DNA from: Synechococcus sp. CBW1002
Lineage (GTDB): Bacteria > Cyanobacteriota > Cyanobacteriia > PCC-6307 > Cyanobiaceae
Assembly: GCF_015840915.1 (NCBI RefSeq)
Contig: NZ_CP060398.1
Coordinates: forward strand, 3,534,001 to 3,598,000
Reading direction: 5' to 3'
Length of the DNA stretch: 64,000 nucleotides
The notes under the pieces were generated by a model. That model did not search any database and was not told the DNA's origin. It worked only from the letters and a program-made list of their open reading frames with translations. Below, one piece after another: positions 27,801-54,225 of this stretch (positions within the stretch are counted from its first letter, which is position 1; the number at the start of each line of letters is the position of its first letter). The translations under genes were made by a program, and so were the position numbers.

Positions 27801-28327
27801 CTGATCTGGTGCAACCACTACGGGCCTTGCTCAGCAGCGAGACGCCCTATGCCGGCGGCCTGATCCCCCAGGCCAATAGCGCCATGGCCGACCTGCAGAA
27901 GCAGTTGGAGCAACGGCTGCAACAGGCCCAGGCTGATGCCCTGCAGCAGATCGCTGAGCAGGAAGCACGGCTCAAGGCCGATACCGATTTCCAGAAGCTC
28001 GATGAGGAGCAGCAATCTCAGGTGCTCGCCCCCACAGCTCAGGCCAAGGCTGAAGTGCAAGGCGCCAGCAAGCCGGGTACTGCGCTGTTGAGGCTGAACC
28101 GCTACCGGGCGGACGAGGTGCCCAAACAGCTGCAACACATGGCGGCTCTGGCAGCTCCTAAGGACGCCCCGGCGCCTGCAGCGATCACGGTGGTAGCGGC
28201 CTTATCCCTCAAGGTGATCTGCCCGATGAGCCAGATCACCAACAGCGCCGAGCTACAGCAATGGCTCGATGCCTTGCGCGCAGCCGCCCAGGCCGAGCTG
28301 GATCAGGGCCACCGGATCAGCCTCTGA
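24842..28327 (+). CDS. brxC: BREX ATPase BrxC
   Basis: A 1161-aa P-loop ATPase, close to the usual BrxC/PglY length (~1200). Walker A 'GFFGSGKSHLLKML' lies near residues 62-75, Walker B 'FFVDEAGQFIG' near 260, followed by 'VFITSQADLEGVLG'. The C-terminal third is rich in coiled coil ('QKQLEQRLQQAQADALQQ', 'EQQSQVLAPTAQA'). BrxC is required for both methylation and phage exclusion in type I BREX. It is translationally coupled to brxB; pglX follows after 50 bases. Confidence 0.93.
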   Translation: MTFKAIRELFAKPVDRPIDGVIKADDERHLQVELDEYVVTREVSKGLGAFTDAYLHNPTANGVWISGFFGSGKSHLLKMLSLMLDSEKRVGEQGHRPAEILLPKVGDEILRADLKKATAIPARSILFNIDQKFDTKGGDKESPILDVFFKVLNELQGYYGKQGYIAQFEYDLDKRGKLDSFKKTYREIIGSDWENDRKAVLTATKSEFAKAYSIHSGVSESDAIRIIDDAKDSFKLSIEDFGQRVKEYLDSQPPGFRLNFFVDEAGQFIGQERSRLLNLQTVVESLATATNGRATVFITSQADLEGVLGQVKFEQADDLSRIQGRFKTKMNLASADVQEVIQRRLLEKDPQEPEQLISIYEQEKENFTTLFRFGDGSIQLKGWSDCQGFCGLYPFHPYQLSLFQQAIQSLATHSIFEGRNMAVGERSMLSVFQEVAKAIKEMPVGRLASFDQLYDGINDVIRSDKKQTMVTAQNQVGELELRILKALFLLKWVPQFKSTARNIAILLINEPNFDIRAHEQAVKDALINLESQSYLQRSGEVYEFLTDKEKDVEQEIKRTEVSDSEVIKALHRIVFDDVLRSNKIRFEDNGNDYSFSQKIDDGLIKGKDTDVAVNLVTPEHPNYGNEAILHSRNMGGTELMAVLPGKERLLEQIRSQLKTDLYVRQNSGSEDEALNAILAIRAKQSGARRQEITRLAEEQLRTAALVVNGQTLSVGEGDPRTRFSKAYQELIRSAFSKLKMVHGAFSETTVAAVVKDQDDLLDGLAVQLSEAEQEVLVEVERQQKLGERLSADDLVRRFEARPYGWSNWATLTFIARLYRLGKLELREKELLSSVEVIDALTNSRKLGGVSVRKQEVYDTSTINALKRFHQDLFNVQSPGTDARSTCEAFRMAMREEAQNLRDLASQAGTYGFLAALKPWAEQAEAMTKKDDGYLLNQLDTFKDSWLDAEEDLLTPLKQFLNGNQKVVYDQVKAFETRYSDEFADLPADLVQPLRALLSSETPYAGGLIPQANSAMADLQKQLEQRLQQAQADALQQIAEQEARLKADTDFQKLDEEQQSQVLAPTAQAKAEVQGASKPGTALLRLNRYRADEVPKQLQHMAALAAPKDAPAPAAITVVAALSLKVICPMSQITNSAELQQWLDALRAAAQAELDQGHRISL

Positions 28328-28377
28328 TCGCGGACGCAGTTTTTCCTTCAAACCACCCACCGATCTACTCCCAGTCC

Positions 28378-31300
28378 ATGCCCGTCAACACCGCTGCCCT
28401 GAAGACCTTTGCCCCGGCAATGCGGCGGCAATTGCTGGAGGCGGTGGGCCGCAAGCTCGATCTACTCCTGAACAGCCAGACGCCTGACACGCTCAGTACC
28501 TACGCCAGGCAAATCGCTGAACTGCGCGCGCAGGAAGGGGAGAACCGAGATCAACTGCTGGAACGGGTGGCCTACACCTGGTTCAACCGGCTGTGTGCGC
28601 TGCGCTATCTCGATGCCCGGGGCTGGCACCCGTTTGGCTGCAAGGTGTTGATGCCAGCAGCCGAAGGTGAAACGCAGCCGGAACTGCTCAAGCTGATGCG
28701 GGCGGGGAGCCTGCCTGCGGCTCTGAAAGGCCACACCAACGAAAGCCGTTTACATGGGCTGCTCGATGAACAGATCCAAACCGCGATCGCTGGTGCCGAC
28801 CCGCAGGGCGAGGTGTATCGCGAGCTTGTGCTGTCAACGTGTCGCTTCTATCACGAGCTGCTGCACAATCTTTTTGAAGGTCTCGATGATGCCAGCGAGT
28901 TATTGCTCCCCGACGACCTGCTGAGCGAGGGATCGATTGCAGGTGGCTTCCGACGTGAGATCAGCGATGACGACTGCCAGGATGTGGAGATTCTGGGCTG
29001 GCTGTATCAGTTCTATATCGCCGAGAAGAAAGATGAGGTCATGGCCCGCAAGAAGGCGGTGCCCACTGAAGACATCCCAGCTGTCACCCAGCTGTTCACG
29101 CCCCACTGGATCGTGCGCTACCTGGTGGAGAACTCCCTTGGCCGACTCTGGCTGCTGAACCGACCTGGTTCCAAGCTGCGCGAGCAGATGCCCTACTACA
29201 TCGAAGGCGAGACAGAAACCGAATTCCTGAAGATCAGCAAGCCTGAGGAAATCAAGCTGCTGGATCCTGCCTGCGGCAGTGGACACATTCTCACCTACGC
29301 CTTCGACTTGCTCACACTCATCTACGAGGAGGAAGGCTACGCCCCCAGCGAAATCCCTGGATTGATTCTCCAGCACAATCTCTCCGGACTGGAGATATGT
29401 CCTCGCGCCGCCCAGCTTGCCGAACTAGCCCTTGTCTTGAAGGGTCGTGAAAAGTCCCGTCGATTTCTCCAGCCGGAGCAGCTGGTGCGCCCTCGAATTA
29501 TTGAGCTTCAGAATCTTCGGTTTCAAGCACACGAGCTCAATAACTATATCGAGGCCCTAGATCTCGGAGAGCTGTTCGATCACACCCTGTTCAAGCTACT
29601 TCGTCAGTTTGAGGAGGCACAGGCCTTCGGCTCTCTCATACAGCCCTGCCTGAACGAACAGGAGGTTGCCAGCGTGCGCCTAGCTATGGAGAGGAAAAAC
29701 TTAGACGATCAGATCTTCTTGCGTGAAACGCACCGCAAAGTTCTACGTGTTCTTAATCAAGCCGAGACGCTTACCCAGAAGTACCACGTCATTGCCGCCA
29801 ATCCACCTTACATGGGCGGGAAGGGAATGAATCCTGTTGTCAAGCAGTTCCTGCAAGAGAACTTTGCAGACTACAAATCGGACTTGTTTGCCGGTTTCAT
29901 TGCTCGGTCGTTAACGCTAACGCTCTCCAAGGGATTCCTTGGGTTCATGACGCCATTCGTCTGGATGTTTATCTCTTCGTATGAAAAGTTGAGGGCCAGG
30001 CTCATTGTTCATGCAACAATTACGTCTTTGGTGCAACTAGAATACTCGGGATTTGATGGGGCTACAGTTCCAATCTGTGCATTTTCTCTTCAGAACAGCC
30101 GCCAAAAGGGCTTCCTTGGTGGATATGTCCGCTTGTCGGACTTTCGAGGCAGTGAAAACCAAGGTCCACGGACTCTGGAAGCCATCTCAAATCCCCAGTG
30201 CGGCTGGTTTTTTCGGGCAGACTCAGATAACTTCAGAAGGATTCCCGGATCCCCTATTGCATATTGGGCAACTGCAAGCATCAGGGAAGTTTTTGAGGCA
30301 GGAACTCCTCTCGGCTCAAAATCAGAGCCACGGGTTGGGCTTCAGACAGGCGAAAATGCAAGATTTGTCAGGTGCTGGCATGAAGTCGATAGCGAAAAAA
30401 TGGGATTTCTTATTCCAAGCAGGGAAGAGGCCGCCAAGAGCCTCAGAAAGTGGTTTCCCTATAATAAAGGTGGTGACTTTAGGCGATGGTACGGTAATCA
30501 GGAATTCGTTGTTGACTGGGAAAGGGACGGATCTCGCGTTCGCAATTTCAAGTTTCAGGACGGAAGCCCTAGATCGTACATCAGGAATTCTGACCGCTAC
30601 TTTAGCCCCTCTATATCATGGTCAAAAATAAGTAGTGGCCTTCCGGCTTTTAGGTTTTTCCCGCAAGGTTTTATCTTTGATGTTGCTGGGACTTCTGTCT
30701 TCAGCAACTCTCACGGAGAGAGCCTAGACGTGCTTGGTTTTGCCAATAGTCTCGTTGCCCAAGTAATCCTTAAGACTATTTCTCCGACTCTAAACTTTGA
30801 GGTCGGGCATATTGCGTCGCTGCCACTCTTGCCTGACCCTCGGCCTTCAAGCCACAGAGATCTAATTGAAAGTCTGGTATCCCTCGCCCGCATCGACTGG
30901 AATAACTTCGAGGCGTCCTGGGACTTCGCGCGCTTGCCTTTGCTGAACTCGGAGTTGAAGGGACAGACTTTGGCCACAAGTTGGCGGAACTGGGAGTTGC
31001 AGAGCGCCGCCGCCATTCGCCGGATGCAGGAGCTGGAGACGGAGAATAACAGTCTCTATATCGCAGCTTACGGCCTTAACGGTGAGCTGAAGCCCGAAGT
31101 ACCGGAGGACCAGATCACTCTTGCATGCGCCGAACAACGAAAGGATATTGGGGCCTTTCTCTCATACGCCATCGGCTGCATGATGGGCCGCTACAGCCTC
31201 GATCAGCCGGGCCTGATCCTGGCCGACTCCCGCGACAGCCAGGCCGCCCAACTTGCTGCCTACGAAGAAAAAGTCGGCAAGCCCCTGAGTGAAGTCGAAT

Positions 31301-31896
31301 TCAGGCCCGATGCCGATGCCATCATCCCTGTGCTCGACGGCGAGTGGTTCGAAGACGACATCGTCGCCCGCACCCGCGAGTTCCTGGAGGTCACCTTCCC
31401 CGAAAGCACCGTCACCGATAATCTACGCTTCATCGAAGAGTCTCTTGGCAAAGATATCCGCAAATATTTCTGCAGCGACTTCTACAAAGATCACCTGCAG
31501 ACCTACAAGAAGCGGCCGATCTACTGGATGGTGCAGAGCCCCAAGAAGGGCTTCGCTTGCCTGATCTACCTGCACCGCTACACCAAGGACACCCTTAACC
31601 AGGTGCTCAACAACTACTTCCGGCCCTACCTGCAGAAGCTGGAAGCTCGGCTGGCCCAGCTCGGTCTCGACCAACTCAACGATGGGCTCCCCACCCGCGA
31701 ACGCACGGCAGCCCGCAAGGAGGCAGAGAAGATCACCAAGGTGCTTAAGGAATGCGAGGCCTGGGAGCAAGACGCCCTCCTGCCCCTGGCCCAGCAGCGC
31801 ATCGAGCTCGATCTCGATGACGGGGTGAAGGTGAACTACCTCAAGCTGCAGGACGTGCTGGCACCGATCCCTGGGCTGGCGGCGAAGGAGGACTGA
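28378..31896 (+). CDS. pglX: BREX adenine DNA methyltransferase PglX
   Basis: A 1172-aa N6-adenine methyltransferase. The SAM motif 'LDPACGSGHILTYAFDLL' is near residue 295 and the catalytic 'NPPY' motif in 'AANPPYMGGKGM' near 473. The C-terminal half holds the target-recognition part, whose sequence around 30050-30700 is more AT-rich than its flanks, as is common for a variable specificity domain exchanged by recombination. PglX marks host DNA at a non-palindromic site; BREX excludes phage lacking the mark. The start at 28378 was chosen because the longer frame to 28261 overlaps brxC. The frame is intact. The first GTPase starts 3 bases after its stop. Confidence 0.93.
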   Translation: MPVNTAALKTFAPAMRRQLLEAVGRKLDLLLNSQTPDTLSTYARQIAELRAQEGENRDQLLERVAYTWFNRLCALRYLDARGWHPFGCKVLMPAAEGETQPELLKLMRAGSLPAALKGHTNESRLHGLLDEQIQTAIAGADPQGEVYRELVLSTCRFYHELLHNLFEGLDDASELLLPDDLLSEGSIAGGFRREISDDDCQDVEILGWLYQFYIAEKKDEVMARKKAVPTEDIPAVTQLFTPHWIVRYLVENSLGRLWLLNRPGSKLREQMPYYIEGETETEFLKISKPEEIKLLDPACGSGHILTYAFDLLTLIYEEEGYAPSEIPGLILQHNLSGLEICPRAAQLAELALVLKGREKSRRFLQPEQLVRPRIIELQNLRFQAHELNNYIEALDLGELFDHTLFKLLRQFEEAQAFGSLIQPCLNEQEVASVRLAMERKNLDDQIFLRETHRKVLRVLNQAETLTQKYHVIAANPPYMGGKGMNPVVKQFLQENFADYKSDLFAGFIARSLTLTLSKGFLGFMTPFVWMFISSYEKLRARLIVHATITSLVQLEYSGFDGATVPICAFSLQNSRQKGFLGGYVRLSDFRGSENQGPRTLEAISNPQCGWFFRADSDNFRRIPGSPIAYWATASIREVFEAGTPLGSKSEPRVGLQTGENARFVRCWHEVDSEKMGFLIPSREEAAKSLRKWFPYNKGGDFRRWYGNQEFVVDWERDGSRVRNFKFQDGSPRSYIRNSDRYFSPSISWSKISSGLPAFRFFPQGFIFDVAGTSVFSNSHGESLDVLGFANSLVAQVILKTISPTLNFEVGHIASLPLLPDPRPSSHRDLIESLVSLARIDWNNFEASWDFARLPLLNSELKGQTLATSWRNWELQSAAAIRRMQELETENNSLYIAAYGLNGELKPEVPEDQITLACAEQRKDIGAFLSYAIGCMMGRYSLDQPGLILADSRDSQAAQLAAYEEKVGKPLSEVEFRPDADAIIPVLDGEWFEDDIVARTREFLEVTFPESTVTDNLRFIEESLGKDIRKYFCSDFYKDHLQTYKKRPIYWMVQSPKKGFACLIYLHRYTKDTLNQVLNNYFRPYLQKLEARLAQLGLDQLNDGLPTRERTAARKEAEKITKVLKECEAWEQDALLPLAQQRIELDLDDGVKVNYLKLQDVLAPIPGLAAKED

Positions 31897-31899
31897 GTC

Positions 31900-34224
31900 A
31901 TGCCTGATCCCGTCCAGGAAGCCGTTGCTGAGCTGGTGTTCGCTGATCAGCTGGTGGACGTCCATGAGCTCGAAGTGCTCGCAGAGCACCCCTGGTTCCT
32001 CAGCTACCAGCAGCGACGGGAACTCGATCCCGATGTGTTCAGCAGCCGGCTGATGACAGCCCACGACGATCCCGCCGTGGACCTGCAGGCCCTCCGGAGG
32101 CTCACCAGCGATGAGCAGGAATCCCTGCTGTGCCTCATGGCCGACCTTGCCGCCATTGATGACCACACCGATCCCCGCGAGGAGCAGGTGCTTGCCCGCC
32201 TGGCCCAGGGACTGCAGCGGCTCCCCCCCTCGGTTGCCACCCGGTTGAACGAGGCTCGCGAACGCACAACAGCCCTGCGGGACAAGCTCAACCAGCCGAA
32301 GTCTGCCCCCAGGAAACGGGTGCGACTGCTCCGCTTTGCGGAGCGCGCTCTGGGACTGGCGACCGTGGATGCCGTGACCTCCAGGGCTGGCCAGGGGGAG
32401 CGGGTGAAGCTCTGGCGCCGCCAGACCCTCTTCAACCACCGTGCCTACAGATCCAGCCTGGAGCAGATGCGCCAGCTCACGGCGGAGCTGATGCCTCAGA
32501 CGCAGGCAACCCTGGAGAGCGCTGCGCAATCCCTGCAATCCCTTCAGGACAGTTTCGCTGGTATCACCAGCGATCTGTTGGCCTCTGACCTGCCGAAAGA
32601 CAGCCAAGAGCAATTGGAGGCCTTGCTCACCACGGTGCAGGAACGCCTGGAGCGCATCGTTCAGCGGGATCTAGACGGTCTCCGCAACGACCTTCTCGCT
32701 AAGCAGCGCAGCCTGAAACAGTTCTGCATGGCCGTCATCGGCCGGACCATGGCGGGCAAAAGCACCCTGATCGCCTCTCTCACGGGCCGGGATCAGGGGG
32801 CCATCGGCAACGGGCAGCAGGGCTTCACCCGCTACAACCGCGCCTACAACTTCCATGGTATCCGTCTGATCGATACCCCTGGCATCGGTGCAGCGGGGGG
32901 CCAGGGTGAAAACTTCGAGCAAGCCGCCCTCCGCGATACGGAAGTGGCCCGCGCCATCTTCCCCGAAACCGATCTCGTCTGCTTCGTGATCGACAGTGAT
33001 TCCAACGTGCCCTGCACCAGAGAGCTGATGCAGCAGCTCCATCGGCGCGGCAAGGCGTTTCTCGTGCTGCTCAACGTGAAGGTGGGCCTTCAGGGGGGAA
33101 TCGATCGGCTGCGCAGCCGTCTTGATGCCAAGTTCGCCAAGCAGGGTGAGCAATCGATCAGCGGCAACATCGCGGCCATTCGGCGTGATCTCGCCCAGGC
33201 CATCGGGGAAGAAGAGGCCGCCAGGGTACCGATCCTTCCCATCCATGCCAAGGCAGCCTTCAAGGCCACGCAGGCTGAAGACCCCATCGAAGCGGAGGCT
33301 TGGCGAGAGCTCAGCCGTCTCGATCAGGTGCTCGAACACATCGATGGGTTGATCACACGCCAAGCACCGGAGCTGCGGCGTCGGACCCTTCGTGCCAACC
33401 CGCGCCAGGAGTTGGAACGCATCGTCCACGACCTGGCCGCGCTGGAGGCGTCCCTCGCGAACCAGGCGCGGGTTTTCCAGGAGACCCAGGACAGCACGGC
33501 CAAGCAGGTGCAGGAGATCTTCGCCGACCTGAAGCGTGAGGTGCGCAACCGCATCCAAGCCATCTTTCAGGCGCTCGATGTGCGTGCAACGAGCTTCAGT
33601 GCTGACAACTACCGGCGGAACGGGAAGGAGATCGAGCGGCGCTGGAAAGCCGAATTGGAACGATTTGGACTGACCAGCCAGGTGGATGATCTGACGGCCT
33701 GGCTGAAGGAGGAACTGGCCATGCGCCTCGATGCCCTTCAGAACGACATACGCGATCGGTTGCTATTTCAGGTGGGTGCGGCAACACTCCACAGCCGATT
33801 GGAGTTTGACCTGGATATTGGCTTCGAGGAAGCCCTGCGTAGCAACGTCAAACTTGGGTTCAAGATTTTGTCCGGAGTCTTTGCGGTCTTCATGTTTGTC
33901 CCAAGCCCGATTCAGCCATTTGCCTGGCTGGGGAGTCTGCTAGCTGGTTTTGCGCCGATGCTGATGGATTGGCTCATTCCCGGTGGTGATCAACGCCGCA
34001 GAGAGGCCCAGAGAGCTCTGAAAGACAAACTGCTCGAAAGCCTCCAGAACCCTAGGGCCAACATGGCCCAGCAATTTGATGAGGCCATCTCAAACCAGCG
34101 AGATCAGGTAGCCGCAGCCATTGCCCAGGCGTTAGGTGGCAGCAGCGCAGCCCTCTTGGCCTTTCGTGAGCAACTCCTGATCACACAAGCCGAGCTATTG
34201 CAAAGCATCACTTCCCTCGACTGA
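31900..34224 (+). CDS. Dynamin-like GTPase 1 with TerB-like N-terminus, embedded in BREX
   Basis: A 774-aa protein. Residues ~5-110 look like a TerB-type helical domain ('ESLLCLMADLAAIDDHTDP', 'REEQVLARLAQGL'). The GTPase part has G1 'GRTMAGKSTL' near 281-290, G3 'DTPGIG' near 324 and a G4-like 'LLNVKVGL' without the usual NKxD. After long coiled-coil helices a hydrophobic hairpin ('GVFAVFMFVPSPIQPFAWL', then 'LAGFAPMLMDWLI') near 650-695 could insert in membrane, as in bacterial dynamin-like proteins. It is only 3 bases after pglX, so it is in the BREX transcript. Paired dynamin-like GTPases form the Eleos (LeoA/LeoBC) phage-defence system; equating this gene with LeoBC is inference. Confidence 0.8.
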   Translation: MPDPVQEAVAELVFADQLVDVHELEVLAEHPWFLSYQQRRELDPDVFSSRLMTAHDDPAVDLQALRRLTSDEQESLLCLMADLAAIDDHTDPREEQVLARLAQGLQRLPPSVATRLNEARERTTALRDKLNQPKSAPRKRVRLLRFAERALGLATVDAVTSRAGQGERVKLWRRQTLFNHRAYRSSLEQMRQLTAELMPQTQATLESAAQSLQSLQDSFAGITSDLLASDLPKDSQEQLEALLTTVQERLERIVQRDLDGLRNDLLAKQRSLKQFCMAVIGRTMAGKSTLIASLTGRDQGAIGNGQQGFTRYNRAYNFHGIRLIDTPGIGAAGGQGENFEQAALRDTEVARAIFPETDLVCFVIDSDSNVPCTRELMQQLHRRGKAFLVLLNVKVGLQGGIDRLRSRLDAKFAKQGEQSISGNIAAIRRDLAQAIGEEEAARVPILPIHAKAAFKATQAEDPIEAEAWRELSRLDQVLEHIDGLITRQAPELRRRTLRANPRQELERIVHDLAALEASLANQARVFQETQDSTAKQVQEIFADLKREVRNRIQAIFQALDVRATSFSADNYRRNGKEIERRWKAELERFGLTSQVDDLTAWLKEELAMRLDALQNDIRDRLLFQVGAATLHSRLEFDLDIGFEEALRSNVKLGFKILSGVFAVFMFVPSPIQPFAWLGSLLAGFAPMLMDWLIPGGDQRRREAQRALKDKLLESLQNPRANMAQQFDEAISNQRDQVAAAIAQALGGSSAALLAFREQLLITQAELLQSITSLD

Positions 34225-34249
34225 CATCTCCCCCTTCTCTTTCTCTGCA

Positions 34250-35965
34250 ATGGCCACCTTCCAACTTCCAGAACTGCAACGCCGGATTCAATCCAGCCTT
34301 GATAGCCTTCAGGCCTTCTTACTAGCCCGTGGCGAACATTCTCTTCAGGAGAAAGCCAACGCCCTGGAACAGCAGCGTCTTGCCTTAGGCGAGAGGGCGC
34401 TGCTCAGCCTTGCCTTCAGCGGCCAGTACAGCGCAGGGAAATCCACCATCATCTCGGCTCTCACCGGCCGCAGCGACATCCACATCTCCGCCGATGTGGC
34501 AACCGATGAGGTGCAGGCCTACCGCTGGCGTGAGATCGAGCTCTGGGACACACCAGGCCTGTTTGCCGATCGTCCGGATCACACCGCTAAGGCTGAGCAA
34601 GCACTGCGTGATGCTGATCTGATCGTCTATTGCCTCACCACCAACTTGTTCGACACCGTCACCGCGGCTGACTTCCGGCGGTTGGCCTTTGAGAATGGCT
34701 TCGCGCCCAAGATCTTCCTGGTGATTAACAAACTCTCGATGGCAGATGTGGAGGACACTGACGACTACATCAACAACCTGACCGTCTCCATCGATCGTAC
34801 CCTCGCCCCCCATCACCTCAACGGCTTCAACCATGCCTTCATCGATGCTCAGGACTTTCGCGAGGGGGTGGCGGATGGCGACGACATCCTGGTGCAGTTC
34901 AGTCGTTTCGAGGGATTCATTCAGCAGCTCAATGGGTGGGTAAAACAACAGGGTCTGCTGGCGCGGCTTGACCCACCTATTCGCCTCGGACTGACCACCA
35001 TCGACGAGGCCCTTGGCACCCTACCGGATGGAACCTTTCAGCAGAACCCGGAACTCTTTCTGCTCAATCAGCAGCTGCGCATTGTGCAGAGTCAGCAACG
35101 ACGCACCGCCGCCGAAGTGCGCCGAATCTCCACCGGTGTGGTGCAGCACGTGCAATTGCTAGGCGAGCAGCTTCTCAGTGGTGAGCTGGGAGAAGAGGAG
35201 AATCAGGCCACATCGAGCTTCCGGGTCAAATGTGAAGAGATCAACAAGTCGGCATTTGACGATCTCAATGGCACTCTCCAAGAAGCCTATGCACAACTCC
35301 AGAGCAAGCTCGACGACTTCGCCCGCGAACCCTTCGTGGCGGAGTACTTCGCCAGCGTTGAAGCCGGCATGGAAGGGACTGTCCCTAGACGAGGCGAAGA
35401 AAGTGGCGCGAAGGTCAATCCCATCAAAGATATTGCAAAGAATCTCCTTGACAGGGGAGCAGAAAACTTTGCTTTTCCTGGTGGAATCATGACCACCTCG
35501 AGCCAGGTTGCAGGCACGGCTGGGCATCAACTTGTCTATACCGTTGGAAAGTTCCTTGGTAAGGATTTCCGGCCGTGGGAAGCGGTGAACATTGCCAAGG
35601 GTCTTGGGCAGGCCGTTGGGATTCTGAGCATCGCCATGGCTGCCTATTCGGTTTATGACCATGTTAATGAGGAGGCCAAAGTCGTGGAGAAGCAGCGCCA
35701 GGCAGATCAGCAGCTCAGTGAGGCCCGGTCGCAGATCCGCAAGCTCGCCGAGGCCATGGCTGCCCAGGTCCAGGACATCTATCAACAGGAGTACGACCTG
35801 CCGGTGGTTGGGGTCATCGTGGAACGCCTCAACGCAGCTCGTGACGTGGTTCTCGCCCGCGAAGCCAGCAACAAGGAGCTAGTGGAAGGCCTCTCGAGTT
35901 ACCGCTTTGAGCTCAAGAGTTGTCTCCAGCAGCTCTACGCCACTGATCGTGAGGGTGGGGTCTGA
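34250..35965 (+). CDS. Dynamin-like GTPase 2 (LeoA-like in size), embedded in BREX
   Basis: A 571-aa GTPase. G1 is 'GQYSAGKSTI' near 57-66, G3 'WDTPGLFAD' near 98-106 and G4 'VINKLSMAD' near 159-167. The middle region is helical and coiled coil. A glycine-rich apolar stretch 'LGQAVGILSIAMAAYSVYD' near 455-473 may touch membrane, followed by another amphipathic helix. It lies 25 bases after GTPase 1. A ~570-aa dynamin-like protein next to a larger GTPase recalls LeoA with LeoBC. The two probably act as a hetero-oligomer on membranes during infection (inference). It converges with the ATPase gene, with 62 bases between the stops. Confidence 0.8.
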   Translation: MATFQLPELQRRIQSSLDSLQAFLLARGEHSLQEKANALEQQRLALGERALLSLAFSGQYSAGKSTIISALTGRSDIHISADVATDEVQAYRWREIELWDTPGLFADRPDHTAKAEQALRDADLIVYCLTTNLFDTVTAADFRRLAFENGFAPKIFLVINKLSMADVEDTDDYINNLTVSIDRTLAPHHLNGFNHAFIDAQDFREGVADGDDILVQFSRFEGFIQQLNGWVKQQGLLARLDPPIRLGLTTIDEALGTLPDGTFQQNPELFLLNQQLRIVQSQQRRTAAEVRRISTGVVQHVQLLGEQLLSGELGEEENQATSSFRVKCEEINKSAFDDLNGTLQEAYAQLQSKLDDFAREPFVAEYFASVEAGMEGTVPRRGEESGAKVNPIKDIAKNLLDRGAENFAFPGGIMTTSSQVAGTAGHQLVYTVGKFLGKDFRPWEAVNIAKGLGQAVGILSIAMAAYSVYDHVNEEAKVVEKQRQADQQLSEARSQIRKLAEAMAAQVQDIYQQEYDLPVVGVIVERLNAARDVVLAREASNKELVEGLSSYRFELKSCLQQLYATDREGGV

Positions 35966-36027: not shown

Positions 36028-37293
36028 CTACAGCGCCAGCCTGGCCGTACCAGTCATCAGGTACTGAATGGCCTCTCGTCCACGACGCGGCAAAGCCTCA
36101 ACGGCACCGGCCTCGATCAGCTGCTGCAGGGTCTGCGACACCGAGGGCTGCTTCACAGCCCACAGCCCCACCAACTCGGCCTGCGTCTGAATCGAGGCGG
36201 GATCCACCTGTGCCCAGGCCACCAACCGCTCCCAGGCTGTATCGCCCAGCTGCTCCTGCAGCTCCGCCTGGTTGCGTTGTCGCAGGCTGAGCAGCAGATC
36301 GCCCAGCCCCACCGGCGCCACTTCGGCGCCGGCACTCGTGAGGCCCAGCAAGGCCGTGATGCCATCTTCCAGGGCCTTCAACAGGCCGCGCAGATCCCCT
36401 CGGAACAGCTCGTAAAGCTTCTGCACCACGGCATCAGTCACGGGGGGCCGCCATGGCTTGGCGGGATCCTGCTGCAGGGCCTCGTAGCGATTGGCCAGCA
36501 GTTGCTTCACCTCAGTCAGATCCAGAGGCTCCAGCACCAGGGGATTGCTGAACACCGAGCGGATCTGGGTGTGGCTCTGCACCACCGTGCGCACCGCATC
36601 GGTGGTGCCCACCACGATCAGATGCAGGCCGTCGTGCAGCAGGGCCTGATCGCGGATCCCCCGCAGCAGATCCGCCGCCCGCGACGCGTCTGCCTCGCTG
36701 AGATTTTCGAGGTTGTTGAGGTGCAGCACGATGCCGCGTGCGCCACGGGCGATGGCGTAACGCAACAGATCACGCAACACCCGCGGTCCATCCAGCAGCA
36801 AGGCCCCTGGTGGCGTGGCCACGATTTCGCTCTGGCTACCGCCAAGCCCCACACCAAAGGCCGACACCGTGAGTCCGCCGCCCCGCAGGCGAATACTGCG
36901 GACCAGTTGCTGGGCGGCTTCCACTTCAGGCCCCGCTGCCGTGGGGCAGTTGGCCAGAACAGCGTCATACACACCCGAGAGGAGCTGCCCCAACAACTGC
37001 TCGCTGGCCCCCTCTGCGCTGATGGGGATGATCTCGTCGGAACTCCAGTACCCCTCCGCCTGGGCATCGGCCTTCACCGTCTGCACCAGGGTGGTTTTGC
37101 CGATCCCCGGCCGGCCGGCCACGGCCTGGCGGGAGCTGGCACTGCTGCCGATCGTGGTGAGCAGCAGCTGCCGCTCCCGTTGCCGGCCCACAAACAGCCG
37201 CAGCGGCGTCGCCTCCGAATCCGCCCGCAACGTGGCCTGGAAGAAGGGCGACGAGCGCAGGTTGTACAGGCCCCAGAGGTTGGGCAGCGCCAT
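36028..37293 (-). CDS. AAA+/Orc1-Cdc6-like ATPase on the reverse strand inside BREX
   Basis: A 421-aa ATPase. Walker A 'GRPGIGKTTLVQTV' is preceded by 'FVGRQRERQLLL', the usual lead of Orc/Cdc6- or STAND-type ATPases. A Walker B-like 'GIVLHLNNLENLSEADASR' has Asn where Asp is usual, and 'LIVVGTTDAVRTV' resembles sensor 1. The C-terminal ~100 residues look like a winged helix ('LVGLWAVKQPSVSQTLQQL', 'IEAGAVEALPRRGREAI'), so it may bind DNA. It converges with GTPase 2 and diverges from pglZ, sharing a 74-bp control region with repeats. It is not a standard type I BREX gene; it may regulate the locus or be part of the GTPase module. The start at 37293 was chosen; an upstream TTG at 37311 would overlap the repeats. 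Confidence 0.78.
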   Translation of the reverse strand: MALPNLWGLYNLRSSPFFQATLRADSEATPLRLFVGRQRERQLLLTTIGSSASSRQAVAGRPGIGKTTLVQTVKADAQAEGYWSSDEIIPISAEGASEQLLGQLLSGVYDAVLANCPTAAGPEVEAAQQLVRSIRLRGGGLTVSAFGVGLGGSQSEIVATPPGALLLDGPRVLRDLLRYAIARGARGIVLHLNNLENLSEADASRAADLLRGIRDQALLHDGLHLIVVGTTDAVRTVVQSHTQIRSVFSNPLVLEPLDLTEVKQLLANRYEALQQDPAKPWRPPVTDAVVQKLYELFRGDLRGLLKALEDGITALLGLTSAGAEVAPVGLGDLLLSLRQRNQAELQEQLGDTAWERLVAWAQVDPASIQTQAELVGLWAVKQPSVSQTLQQLIEAGAVEALPRRGREAIQYLMTGTARLAL

Positions 37294-37301
37294 GGCTCGA
37301 C

Positions 37302-37361
37302 GTATTGGCAACGGGCGTCAGCCAGCCAATACTGGTCATGTATTGGCCGATCTGGCAATAC
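37302..37361. promoter_or_regulatory. Operator-like GTATTGGC repeats between ATPase and pglZ
   Basis: Four copies of one 8-base motif in alternating orientation: GTATTGGC at 37302-37309, GCCAATAC at 37325-37332, GTATTGGC at 37340-37347 and GGCAATAC at 37354-37361 (one mismatch). They fill the gap between the divergent ATPase start (37293) and the pglZ start (37368). Such paired inverted repeats are typical of a dimeric regulator binding twice, here able to control both genes. Confidence 0.65.
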
Positions 37362-37367
37362 CTGCCC

Positions 37368-39911
37368 ATGACCCGCTCCCCTGCCGCCACCAGCCGCATC
37401 CACGAGAGCCTCGAAGCAGCTCTCGCCCGCAAGCGCGTGGTGCTCTGGTACGACCCCAACGGTGAGTGGGCCTCCGAATTCGACGACTACCAGCCCGGAC
37501 AAGCCGAGAAGCTGCGGGTGGAGAACAACGAGTTCTCCGTGAAAGTGCAGGTCAGCCGCGCCCCCCTCGACCAGCGCTTCCTGCTCTACATCCCTTCGCC
37601 CAAACCAGCCGAACCCGATAACTGGCTGCTGGATCTGCTGCTGGCGGGCCATGAGTTCACGGCTGATCGCGCCTCCCTCGACATCCAGGAAGCGGGGCTG
37701 ACACTGGAGTTCAAAGAGCTGGCCCAGGAGCACAAGGCCTTCTTCCGCTCATCGGTGCGCACCACCAAGCTCAAGGAACTGCGGCGTCCCAACGACGACA
37801 AGGCCGCCGTTCGGCTCAAGATGCTCGCCGTGCTGGCCAAGCAGCCGCCCGATATCGACAAGCTCTTGCTGCATGCCTTCGGGCAGCTGGCTCCGGCCAA
37901 CCCCGATGGCGACGACCCGGTGGAGACCCTCTATGGAAACCACCAGCTGAGCAGCTATTTCTGGAAGGCGGTTGGCGAGAAGTTCGGCTACGCCAGCCCC
38001 GAGCCCAACCTGCGCGACTTCGCCGTTGCCCTGTTCAACAGCGTGAGCTCGATCGGGCCCGATGGCGGCCTGCTGCCCCACGCCCGGGTGTTCCTGAGCA
38101 TCTGGAAGGACAGCCTCAGCGCAAGGAGTGCCTTTCAGCAGTGGAGCGATCACCTCGCCGGTGTGCTGCGCGTGGAGGAGCAGCTCAACGACGCGCCAGA
38201 CAGCTACGACCCAGACGACGACGACAGCTATGAGCTGATCGAGCGTTTTGTGCTCAGCCGCCTGCTGCAGCGTTTCCAGAGCGACGCCTCAGACGCCGAG
38301 CTGCTGGATGCGATCCGCAACCGCAGCAGCTCCTGCTGGTTTGACAAGCACCTGCACGGCTACCGTGCCCTGGAGCAGGCGATCAGCTTCCGCCAACTGC
38401 TGGCGAAGGCTGATCTGCAGGTGCCCGGTTTCGAGGAGGGTCTGCAGCGCTATTGCAATGGCTGGTGGCGGCTGGATCAGGCTTACCGGCGCTGCATCTT
38501 CCATGCCCGCACCTACCAGCAGCCCACCCTCTTCAAGCCGCTGCGGGAATGGTTGGAGAACCAGTACGTGAACAACGTGCTGCTGCCGCTCACCAACCGC
38601 TGGAGCGATCAGGTGAGTCAGCTCAGCAGCTGGAGCTCCACGGCCTTGCCGCGGCAGAAGGAGTTCCACATGCGCTACTTGCATGCACCGCTGGGCGCCA
38701 AGAGTCTCAAGCGCCTGTTTGTGGTGATCTCCGATGCCCTGCGCTACGAGGCCGCCCGCGACTACGCCGAGCGCCTCAACGCTCAGGCGGGCAAGGGGTG
38801 GAAGGCCGAGGTGGAAGCTCTGTTGGGGGTGCTGCCCAGTTACACCCAGCTGGGCATGGCAGCCCTGCTGCCCGGTGCTCAGCTCGGCATCAATATCCAC
38901 GACCCGCAGGCCAAGGCCTTGCTAGACGGCCAGAGCGCAGCCGGCACCGACAACCGCGACAAGATCCTCAAGGCCTACGCCAATGGCCGTGCGAAGGCGA
39001 TCCAGGCGGAAGACTTCCTCAACCTACCCACCACTAAGGAAGGGGCCGAGCTGATCAAAGAGCACGATCTGATCGTGGTGTTTCACAACCGGATCGACCG
39101 GATCGGCGACAAGCGCGACACAGAAGCCGACACCTGCCAGGCGGTGGAGCAGGCCTTCGAGGAGCTGGACGCGATCCTGCGCAAGATCAGCAGCCTCAAG
39201 GGCAGCCAGGCCGTGATCACCGCCGACCACGGCTTCCTCTTCCAGCAGGAACCGGTGGATGCCAACGACCGCTCGGAGTTCCCCGCGGCCAAAGAGCTCA
39301 CCTTCAAGAACCGCCGCTTTGCCCTGGGCAGTGGCATCAAGCCCAGTGCCGGGCAGAAGGTGTTCACCGCCGCGGAGCTGGGTCTGACCGGCAGCTGGGA
39401 AGCGGTGTTCCCGCTGGGCCTCGATCGCTATCCCCGTTCGGGCTCCGGTTCACGCTTCGTGCACGGCGGCACTTCCCTGCAGGAGGTGGTGGTGCCGGTG
39501 ATCCGGCTCAAGCGGGAACGCAAGGACGAGAGCCGCGTGGTGGAGGCCGAGCTGCTGCGGGTGCCCGCCAAGATCACCATGGGCAAGCTGAGCTTCGGGC
39601 TGTTCCAGCTGGAGCCCGTGGAACCCCGCAAGCGGTTGCCGCTGCAGCTGCGCATCGGCCTGTACGCCAAGGCCGATGGGGCCCTGCTCTGTGCCCACCG
39701 CACCGTGCTGCTCGATTCCGCCGCCAGCGAAGCCCGCGAGCGGGAGCAGCAGGTGGTGCTGGAGCTGTCCAACGCGGCCGGGGACTACAACAACCAGACC
39801 CTGGAGCTGCGACTAGAGCAGCTGCTGGAGGGTGTCAGCCAGCCCCAGGCCTACAAGACTGTGGACCTGAAGCTGCAGCGGCCCTTCGGCAGCGACTTCG
39901 ACGACTTTTGA
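37368..39911 (+). CDS. pglZ: BREX alkaline-phosphatase-superfamily protein PglZ
   Basis: An 847-aa protein of the PglZ family. The alkaline-phosphatase-like metal motifs are 'VVISDALRYEAARDYAERL' near 450 and 'AVITADHGFLFQ' near 615. The N-terminal part begins 'LARKRVVLWYDPNGEW', a frequent PglZ opening. PglZ is required for BREX methylation and defence and interacts with PglX. The start at 37368 lies just after the repeat cluster; the longer frame from TTG at 37305 would read through the operator-like repeats and was rejected. It is separated from pglX by the GTPase pair and the reverse ATPase, so it needs its own promoter. Confidence 0.92.
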   Translation: MTRSPAATSRIHESLEAALARKRVVLWYDPNGEWASEFDDYQPGQAEKLRVENNEFSVKVQVSRAPLDQRFLLYIPSPKPAEPDNWLLDLLLAGHEFTADRASLDIQEAGLTLEFKELAQEHKAFFRSSVRTTKLKELRRPNDDKAAVRLKMLAVLAKQPPDIDKLLLHAFGQLAPANPDGDDPVETLYGNHQLSSYFWKAVGEKFGYASPEPNLRDFAVALFNSVSSIGPDGGLLPHARVFLSIWKDSLSARSAFQQWSDHLAGVLRVEEQLNDAPDSYDPDDDDSYELIERFVLSRLLQRFQSDASDAELLDAIRNRSSSCWFDKHLHGYRALEQAISFRQLLAKADLQVPGFEEGLQRYCNGWWRLDQAYRRCIFHARTYQQPTLFKPLREWLENQYVNNVLLPLTNRWSDQVSQLSSWSSTALPRQKEFHMRYLHAPLGAKSLKRLFVVISDALRYEAARDYAERLNAQAGKGWKAEVEALLGVLPSYTQLGMAALLPGAQLGINIHDPQAKALLDGQSAAGTDNRDKILKAYANGRAKAIQAEDFLNLPTTKEGAELIKEHDLIVVFHNRIDRIGDKRDTEADTCQAVEQAFEELDAILRKISSLKGSQAVITADHGFLFQQEPVDANDRSEFPAAKELTFKNRRFALGSGIKPSAGQKVFTAAELGLTGSWEAVFPLGLDRYPRSGSGSRFVHGGTSLQEVVVPVIRLKRERKDESRVVEAELLRVPAKITMGKLSFGLFQLEPVEPRKRLPLQLRIGLYAKADGALLCAHRTVLLDSAASEAREREQQVVLELSNAAGDYNNQTLELRLEQLLEGVSQPQAYKTVDLKLQRPFGSDFDDF

Positions 39912-39923
39912 TGGCCTTAGTCC

Positions 39924-40262
39924 ATGCCTAAACTAAGTGAGTCGTCTGCTGATGGCGCCATGGAATCGCTCCCGCCCACGCAGCACGTGGCGCCCCGCGT
40001 CGTGAACGTGCACCAGGCCAAGACCCACCTCTCCCGCCTGATCGATGACGCCCATGCCGGTGAGACGATCCTGCTGGCCAAGGCCGGCAAGCCCTGGGCG
40101 CGATTGATGCCCCTGGCTCCGCCCGTTCCCCAGCGCATCCCGGGGCGCTTGCGCAGCCAGGGGCCCCTCGCCCAGCCCAACGTGCTGCTCGAACCCATGG
40201 ACCCAAGCGAACTGGAGCGCTGGGAGTCCAGCCCCCTGCTGCCGGAGGCGCCGCTGCCATGA
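39924..40262 (+). CDS. Phd/YefM-like antitoxin within the BREX operon
   Basis: A 112-aa protein. 'RVVNVHQAKTHLSRLIDDA' followed by 'GETILLAKAGKPWARLMPL' is the classical DNA-binding and dimer region of Phd/YefM antitoxins; the C-terminus would cover the toxin. It starts 12 bases after the pglZ stop and overlaps the toxin start (ATGA). A shorter start at 39960 is possible, since the first 12 residues are not part of the fold. Confidence 0.88.
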   Translation: MPKLSESSADGAMESLPPTQHVAPRVVNVHQAKTHLSRLIDDAHAGETILLAKAGKPWARLMPLAPPVPQRIPGRLRSQGPLAQPNVLLEPMDPSELERWESSPLLPEAPLP

Positions 40263-40657
40263 GCAGTGGTGCCGCCTACCTGCTCGACAGCCACGCTCTG
40301 CTGTGGTGGTGGTTCGATCCCGATCGTCTCTCCACCGCCGTGCGTGAGCTGCTCGGCGACCCCGCTACGCCAGTGCTGGTGAGCGCAGCCTCGGTGTGGG
40401 AGCTCAGCCTCAAGCACCACCAGGGCAAGCTGCCCGAACTGAGCGGTGCCATTGCCGATCTGCCGGGGTTGCTGCAAGCCGATGGCTTCGAGGCGCTGCC
40501 GATCTCCCTGGCCCATGGGCTGCGGGCGGGCGGTTACAGCCAGCCCCATCGCGATCCCTTTGATCGCATGCTGGCTGCCCAGGCAGAACTGGATCGCCTG
40601 GTGCTGCTCACCGCCGATCCCCAGCTCTCCACCTTCCCCTGCCGCACCTTCTGGTGA
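40259..40657 (+). CDS. VapC-type PIN-domain toxin within the BREX operon
   Basis: A 132-aa PIN-domain protein, a Mg-dependent RNase toxin in such pairs. Acidic site residues are in 'YLLDSHALLWWW', 'ASVWELSLK' and 'HRDPFDRMLAAQA', with 'LLTADPQL' near the end. It is intact, as is its antitoxin. It overlaps the antitoxin stop and its TGA overlaps the GTG of brxL, so toxin and BrxL translation are coupled. An addiction or backup-suicide role for the BREX locus is inference. Confidence 0.9.
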   Translation: MSSGAAYLLDSHALLWWWFDPDRLSTAVRELLGDPATPVLVSAASVWELSLKHHQGKLPELSGAIADLPGLLQADGFEALPISLAHGLRAGGYSQPHRDPFDRMLAAQAELDRLVLLTADPQLSTFPCRTFW

Positions 40658-53681: not shown

Positions 53682-54225
53682 CTGATTCCTCCCAGGCAAC
53701 CTGGTTGATCTAATTTATCAGACTGGATGACGCAGTTCCTTCGCTCCAAGGCGATTACAGCCTCTTCATCGCTACTACGAACTGCTCCGCCCCTGACAAG
53801 GTCATTGGTATTCAGACTCATGATTGTAGCCACTTGATCTTTTCCCTTGGCATCCCATGTCAGGTTCCCACGTTCCGTATCGAGGCCTGTGATGAGCTCG
53901 TGCCGTCTATACACCGGCTGCCATGTGGTCCGTATACAGGTGTCGCCCACACTGATCCGAGCTGTACATGCCTCAGCTCGTTTTGACAGCAACTGGAACG
54001 CATTTCGATGTGTCATCGACGGTTCGCTTGCGCTCACCTTCTCATCACTCACCTGACGGATCAACTCCGCCTTTTCCCCATCGCTCACCACCACGGCTTT
54101 TGACCGCAACAGCATGGGGTGGTTTGAAGCCAGCCCCTGCAGGCAGACATCGGGAGGCCACACTCCCATCCTCGATACAGTTACGACATAGTTCATGAAG
54201 AATCTATGCCTCGTGGCACACGCAC
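53682..54225 (-). ncRNA. Group II intron RNA, 5' part (domains I-IV)
   Basis: The sequence starts GTGCG at 54225 (minus strand), the canonical 5' end of group II introns, exactly where the transposase exon at 54226 stops matching its homologue. Inside are typical intron stretches such as ATACGGAACGTGGGAACC. The RT start codon follows at 53681, as in domain IV. A 172-aa frame across this region is not regarded as a gene. Domains V and VI are missing together with the RT end. Confidence 0.75.

What the first reader, a model, noticed from the sequence alone, without database searches (positions are those of the whole stretch)
37294..37367. GTATTGGC repeat cluster as a possible switch between the ATPase and pglZ
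Four alternating copies of an 8-base motif fill the 74-bp divergent gap. This is seen directly. Such spacing fits a dimeric regulator controlling both genes. The ATPase has a winged-helix-like C-terminus and could be that regulator itself. No such motif appears upstream of brxA, so the second half of the BREX locus may be regulated separately from the first.
Basis: partly seen in the sequence, partly recalled or inferred. Interest (0 to 1): 0.62.

Follow-up and report, generated by a model that had tools for sequence, protein, structure and literature searches.

The report
Mobile ATPase's four-box DNA switch
A 60-base cluster of four mirrored DNA boxes in front of an Orc1-like ATPase gene is a real, strongly conserved control element; it moved into this phage-defence (BREX) locus together with that gene, and the same element also occurs in cyanobacterial phages.

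Summary
The repeats are real: three exact GTATTGGC copies plus one with a single change lie at 37302-37361, and the window has no other exact copy. They form one 60-nt unit, box-6-box-7-box-15-box. All 24 full-length relatives of the ATPase with at least 66% identity carry it 7-9 nt before the start codon. Boxes are 89% identical between loci, spacers 50%. Five more distant copies lack it.

The unit belongs to the ATPase, not to pglZ. Where relatives lack the ATPase between pglX and pglZ, pglZ follows pglX directly, without boxes. The ATPase with its boxes is mobile: it sits in BREX, McrBC, core-gene and helicase/primase loci, and some copies have a second unit after the stop codon. The same unit occurs in cyanophages, including cultured S-EIV1, next to start codons.

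The ATPase model matches Orc1/Cdc6 and TnsC and ends in a winged helix. The only promoter-like site in the region is built from the boxes.

Best reading: a bidirectional promoter-operator that travels with, and is probably bound by, an Orc1-like regulator, and that gave pglZ-brxL a new promoter. Binding and function are untested. Recombination-site and phage-decoy readings remain open.

The parts
37302..37361 (.). Four-box element (60 nt): box-15-box-7-box-6-box on the + strand; in ATPase orientation M1-6-M2-7-M3-15-M4
   Evidence: same spacing in 24 ATPase relatives and in cyanophage contigs
37302..37309 (+). Box GTATTGGC (M4 in ATPase orientation), exact
37325..37332 (-). Box GTATTGGC (M3 in ATPase orientation), exact
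37340..37347 (+). Box GTATTGGC (M2 in ATPase orientation), exact
37354..37361 (-). Box GTATTGCC (M1 in ATPase orientation), one mismatch
37305..37333 (+). Promoter-like TTGGCA-17-AATACT reading towards pglZ, built from two boxes; the palindrome puts a weaker mirror version (TTGGCT-17-AATACG) on the other strand reading towards the ATPase
   Evidence: 9/12 on +; 0.0 in shuffles; mirror version read
36028..37293 (-). Orc1/Cdc6- or TnsC-like AAA+ ATPase gene, 421 aa, the proposed binder and mobile passenger
36031..36183 (-). C-terminal winged-helix part of the ATPase (residues 371-421) with the helix KQPSVSQTLQQL
37368..39911 (+). pglZ, divergent neighbour, cut off from the pglX operon by the ATPase
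28261..31896 (+). pglX, which directly precedes pglZ in relatives without the ATPase

Best explanation
The 60-nt four-box unit is a promoter-operator that travels with the mobile ATPase gene. Two inverted pairs of the half-site GTATTGGC, at fixed spacings of 6, 7 and 15 nt, are most likely bound by the ATPase's own winged helix as dimers or higher oligomers. The M3-15-M4 pair is also a nearly symmetric -35/-10 pair (TTGGC-17-AATAC) on both strands, so the bound protein would set its own transcription and, in this locus, that of pglZ-brxL. The module inserted antisense between pglX and pglZ, replacing the short pglX-pglZ operon junction and giving pglZ and brxL a new, separately controlled promoter. 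Shown: conservation, fixed spacing, association with the ATPase, mobility, altered pglZ context, presence in phages. Predicted: winged helix, Orc1/TnsC-like fold, promoter-like site. Inferred: protein binding, identity of the binder, control in both directions.
For: Boxes are 0.89 identical against 0.50 for spacers over 24 loci (0.86 against 0.46 in the 13 divergent ones), and M4 stands 7-9 nt from the ATG in all 24. The five copies of 59% identity or less lack the element; the two of these aligned to the main group also have a different recognition helix, LDIEEVSETMEKL against KQPSVSQTLQQL. AlphaFold model: confident C-terminal helix-helix-strand-strand, full-length match to Orc1/Cdc6 on origin DNA (2qby Z 16.2, 2v1u Z 15.5) and to TnsC (7ufi Z 15.6). 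The only promoter-like site in 37150-37500 is made of the boxes. In BREX relatives without an inserted ATPase (L295, L299, L308, L309, L317) pglZ follows pglX with an AAGGAGG ribosome site and no boxes. Phage copies also sit next to start codons on either side. A Gemmatimonas relative (46%) has two perfect inverted repeats of another sequence before its start. Precedent: archaeal Orc1-2, a non-initiator Orc1, binds a motif on its own promoter (PMC9738581).
Against: Single units persist in genomes with no ATPase and lie between two convergent gene ends in locus A, where a promoter makes little sense. Some copies carry a second, even perfect, unit after the stop codon. Phages carry the unit without the ATPase. 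The TTGGCA/AATACT hexamers match the consensus only 9 of 12. No binding or expression data exist.
Confidence: 0.5

Rival explanations
1. The unit is mainly a recombination or insertion site: the end repeat of a one-gene cassette, with exchange between boxes M1 and M2, rather like an integron cassette.
For: In locus A three genomes have unit-ATPase-unit while two have one unit, continuous flanks, and a hybrid unit: M1 as in the 5' copy, M2-M4 as in the 3' copy. Other genomes of the genus have neither. In five copies the 3' unit starts exactly 8 nt after the stop codon, mirroring the 7-9 nt at the 5' end. Locus B shows a similar pattern.
Against: No gene other than the ATPase was seen between two units. 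The 5' unit is kept in all 24 copies while the 3' unit is missing or decayed in most. The 6-nt spacer of M1-M2 is not conserved. Phage copies are single and abut start codons. No recombinase was identified. Deletion between direct repeats explains the hybrid single units equally well.
Confidence: 0.2
2. The unit is a phage-type operator bound by a phage or host factor; the host module and a helicase/primase locus carry it so that they respond to infection. The ATPase is only its output.
For: The same spacing occurs in at least 13 IMG/VR contigs and in phage S-EIV1, in at least two cyanophage groups. Two S-EIV1-like contigs have it 10-18 nt from the gene of a small protein predicted to have winged-helix topology. 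Single units are conserved in genomes without the ATPase.
Against: No common phage factor was identified; the phage protein shows no sequence relation to the ATPase. The unit tracks ATPase clades and, in the copies compared, their recognition helix.
Confidence: 0.18
3. Phage copies are decoy or immunity DNA against the ATPase, as aba DNA is against BstA; the boxes before the ATPase are the cognate DNA.
For: Like aba (63 bp overlapping the bstA start, DNA-based; PMC8585504) the unit is about 60 bp at the start of the gene and also lies in phages. Cyanophage contig L186 carries exactly the unit plus the first 38 pglZ codons.
Against: No defence activity of the ATPase is known; phage copies sit next to start codons as promoters do.
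Confidence: 0.08
4. The unit acts as a hairpin-forming RNA or single-stranded DNA element.
For: Two stems with some double-sided changes (8 cells, above all shuffles); folding z -2.75 in the window and -5.04 in the L131 3' copy.
Against: Box letters themselves are conserved and most pairs show no compensating change; the window, G306, G264 and others keep a C-C mismatch in M1-M2.
Confidence: 0.04

Closest known systems
Archaeal Orc1-2 (non-initiator Orc1/Cdc6 regulator, PMC9738581)
   Same: AAA+ plus C-terminal winged helix; binds a short motif on its own promoter; predicted fold match
   Different: Bacterial and mobile; below the curated cut-off of the orc1/cdc6 family; usual acidic Walker B residues replaced by HLNN; other DNA motif
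BrxR regulator of type I BREX (PMC9122589)
   Same: Regulator in a BREX locus with a pseudo-palindromic site overlapping a promoter
   Different: BrxR is a winged-helix/WYL protein in front of the whole operon; here an AAA+ protein with four boxes in mid-locus
BstA and its aba DNA element (PMC8585504)
   Same: About 60 bp of DNA at the gene start, also found in phages
   Different: Unrelated protein; no immunity shown
TnsC of Tn7-like transposons
   Same: Fold match Z 15.6; module is mobile
   Different: No transposase genes beside it in the neighbours checked; winged-helix C-terminus and own promoter-like boxes
Integron gene cassette with attC
   Same: One gene, compact, flanked by palindromic units; hybrid single site
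   Different: Box letters do not fit the attC R-box consensus GTTRRRY; asymmetric spacing; no array seen

Membership tests
Orc1/Cdc6 family | Curated family score (TIGR02928) | tested here: not met
   12.0 bits against a cut-off of 181.3
Orc1/Cdc6 family | AAA+ domain followed by a C-terminal winged helix | tested here: met
   AAA_16 in Pfam; predicted winged helix and full-length structural match
Orc1/Cdc6 family | Walker A and acidic Walker B | tested here: inconclusive
   Walker A GRPGIGKT conserved (I or L in the middle); the strand expected to carry Walker B reads HLNN-LE, without the usual acidic pair, E196 invariant
Orc1-2-type regulators | Binds a motif on its own promoter | not testable with these tools
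   Conserved boxes 7-9 nt before the start codon are only circumstantial
BrxR | Winged helix plus WYL domain | tested here: not met
   Only AAA-type families found in Pfam for the ATPase
BrxC/BrxD ATPases | Curated family scores | tested here: inconclusive
   PF10923 23.3 bits against 22.2 over residues 33-131 only; NCBIfam BrxD 15.6 against 350
BstA-aba | BstA protein with KilA-N-like domain | tested here: not met
   No such domain reported for the ATPase in Pfam
BstA-aba | Element protects a replicating phage carrying it | not testable with these tools
   Presence in phages shown, effect unknown
TnsC | Accompanied by TnsA/TnsB-type transposase genes | tested here: inconclusive
   No transposase among immediate neighbours checked except an IS605 OrfB near one copy; neighbours were sampled only
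Integron attC site | R boxes RYYYAAC / GTTRRRY | tested here: not met
   Boxes are GCCAATAC / GTATTGGC; the attC consensus is from general knowledge
Integron attC site | IntI integrase acting on it | not tested
   No search for integrases was made

The most novel reading that the evidence does not exclude
A mobile Orc1-like ATPase carries a four-box operator that it shares with cyanophages, so that BREX genes placed next to it (pglZ-brxL) are switched by, or titrated through, a phage-type control element during infection.
Probability: 0.22. Interest if true: 0.85.

Novelty: new variant of a known kind. Interest (0 to 1): 0.6.

Why it matters
It shows a BREX operon cut in two by a mobile regulatory module, so its two halves can be controlled apart, and it ties a host defence locus and cyanophages to one and the same DNA element. 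If the ATPase binds it, this is a bacterial Orc1-like protein acting as a mobile transcription regulator. If phages use or exploit the element, it gives a directly testable route by which defence genes sense infection or phages disarm them. The four-box pattern also lets such modules be found by simple search.

Tried and rejected
Chance: rejected. Tandem repeat array: none found. Known RNA family: Rfam reports only a group II intron elsewhere in the window. A pglZ-specific operator: rejected, since pglZ lacks it where the ATPase is absent. Alternative pairing M1-M4 with M2-M3: weaker than M1-M2 with M3-M4. ATPase relatives in phages, plasmids or IMG/VR: none found at the sensitivity used. Solved sequence relatives of the ATPase: only weak, short matches. 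Similar boxes before the ATPases of 59% identity or less: none. Sequence relation between the phage winged-helix-like protein and the ATPase: none. Order of events in locus A (insertion into a single unit, or loss from a double one): not resolved; the tree node that decides it has support 0.225.

Full report
THE OBSERVATION. The gap between the ATPase (36028-37293, minus) and pglZ (37368-39911, plus) holds GTATTGGC at 37302 (+), 37325 (-) and 37340 (+), and GTATTGCC at 37354 (-). These are the only exact copies in the window; the genome has 37 in 3.85 Mb, so three in 74 bp is far beyond chance (about 6e-11). Upstream of brxA there is nothing comparable. The locus is a BREX locus: brxA 23389, brxB 24234, brxC 24842, pglX 28261, two dynamin-like (Leo-like) genes 31900 and 34250, ATPase, pglZ, a small antisense gene, brxL 40654.

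ONE UNIT WITH FIXED ANATOMY. A search of 400 genomes of the family found ATPase matches in 46. All 24 full-length copies with at least 66% identity that were examined have four boxes in the order GTATTGGC-6-GCCAATAC-7-GTATTGGC-15-GCCAATAC ending 7-9 nt before the start codon; one of them (L034) is decayed to 8 mismatches, the rest have 4 or fewer out of 32. Box columns are 0.89 identical and spacers 0.50; among the 13 divergent copies 0.86 and 0.46. Five copies with 59% identity or less have no such unit. In the two of these included in the alignment the helix KQPSVSQTLQQL of the C-terminal domain is replaced by LDIEEVSETMEKL. Conservation of letters, with lengths but not letters of the spacers kept, points to a protein that reads the boxes. 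Double-sided changes in the stems exist but are few.

IT TRAVELS WITH THE ATPASE. Neighbours differ from copy to copy: BREX loci (window, L079-L082, L085, L087), between an McrB-like AAA_5 gene and a probable mcrC in L078 (the latter judged by eye from its start IPVRNIWWLMLYASDL; no Pfam match), beside a DSHCT helicase core gene (L092, L093, L096), in a helicase/primase module (L089), and others. In BREX relatives that lack the ATPase at this place, pglX is followed within about 12-15 nt by pglZ with an AAGGAGG ribosome site and no boxes (L295, L299, L308, L309, L317). Boxes abut pglZ only in the window and in G306, G264 and G094, all with the ATPase. Some other BREX loci have a single unit between pglX and pglZ without an intact ATPase (L097, L099, L112). 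So the module inserted into the pglX-pglZ junction, in antisense, and pglZ-brxL were cut off from the upstream operon.

SECOND UNITS AND EMPTY SITES. Seven copies have a second unit in the same orientation after the stop codon, in five of them exactly 8 nt after it. In locus A three genomes have unit-ATPase-unit, two have a single unit with flanks that are continuous and about 92-96% identical, and many others of the genus have no unit. The single unit is a hybrid, M1 like the 5' copy and M2-M4 like the 3' copy. This fits either recombination into a single unit or deletion between two; the flank tree does not decide. Genomes with single units (G219, G047, G276, G162, G185, G231, G189, G151) have no ATPase, and in locus B single units keep their boxes over diverged flanks. 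The element thus has, or had, a value beyond the ATPase.

CYANOPHAGES. Of 31 IMG/VR stretches with an exact M2-7-M3 core, 13 have the full unit with 5 or fewer of 32 mismatches; L184 is perfect. Cultured Synechococcus phage S-EIV1 (KJ410740) has it with 3 mismatches. The contigs that could be placed belong to S-EIV1-like phages and to phages sharing genes with S-CBS2, S-RIP1 or KBS-S-2A. The unit lies next to start codons on either side, for instance 6 nt (L208), 18 nt (L183) and 26 nt (L184). In L183 and L189 the neighbour is a small protein with predicted winged-helix topology, a modest-confidence model.

THE PROTEIN. The AlphaFold model (mean pLDDT 74; C-terminal domain mostly 87-95) matches archaeal Orc1/Cdc6 bound to origin DNA over its full length and TnsC nearly as well. 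It is not a curated Orc1/Cdc6 family member, and the strand expected to carry Walker B reads HLNN. Archaeal Orc1-2 is a precedent for such a protein acting as a regulator on its own promoter (PMC9738581). Relatives are nearly confined to the picocyanobacterial family, with one Gemmatimonas outlier.

HOW IT LIKELY WORKS. The region's only promoter-like site, TTGGCA-17-AATACT towards pglZ, is made of two boxes, and their symmetry gives a weaker version towards the ATPase. The likeliest mechanism is that winged-helix dimers on the two inverted pairs set transcription both ways, with the ATPase as autoregulator. What is shown is the anatomy, conservation, mobility and phage occurrence; binding, the identity of the binder and regulation are inferred. 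The recombination-site reading and the phage-operator or decoy readings are kept as rivals, and they are not mutually exclusive with it.

Noticed in passing
L186:8359-8542 (IMGVR_UViG_3300034073_001392; same contig as L320): A cyanophage contig with a portal gene carries a 184-bp, 86% identical copy of exactly the four-box unit plus the first 38 codons of pglZ, without the ATPase; the frame stays open for an 83-aa peptide starting with the PglZ N-terminus. It could be an anti-BREX peptide, an operator decoy, or captured host DNA.
   Followed up: partly
window 31900-35965: Two dynamin-like (LeoBC/LeoA-like) genes sit inside the BREX locus between pglX and the ATPase; they are present in some relatives (L081, L085) and absent in others.
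   Followed up: no
window 39917-40549: Small antisense gene of unknown function between pglZ and brxL, present in some BREX relatives and absent in others.
   Followed up: no
L081:8732-9154 and L082:7310-7636: Remnants of a pglX 3' end next to the unit, as if pglX had been exchanged together with the ATPase module.
   Followed up: partly
L082, L084 and L097, upstream of the four-box unit: A different inverted-repeat pair (GGATTCCCAATGAATGGC / TTTATTGGGAATCC) lies before another gene beside the module.
   Followed up: no
L144:5892-5945: The Gemmatimonas relative of the ATPase has two perfect inverted repeats of another sequence before its start (TTTGTCGAT-11-ATCGACAAA, GTAGATAT-7-ATATCTAC).
   Followed up: partly
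window 36028-37293: The ATPase family has HLNN where an acidic Walker B would be expected, so ATP hydrolysis may be weak or absent.
   Followed up: no
locus B: L089, L100, L102, L103, L106: A helicase/primase module with a variable slot beside the unit that holds toxin-antitoxin-like genes (judged by eye) or the ATPase.
   Followed up: partly
window 54051-54167: Group II intron fragment on the minus strand (Rfam RF01999).
   Followed up: no
G372, G375, G378, G154, G257: Many broken or internally deleted ATPase copies, so the gene is often lost.
   Followed up: no
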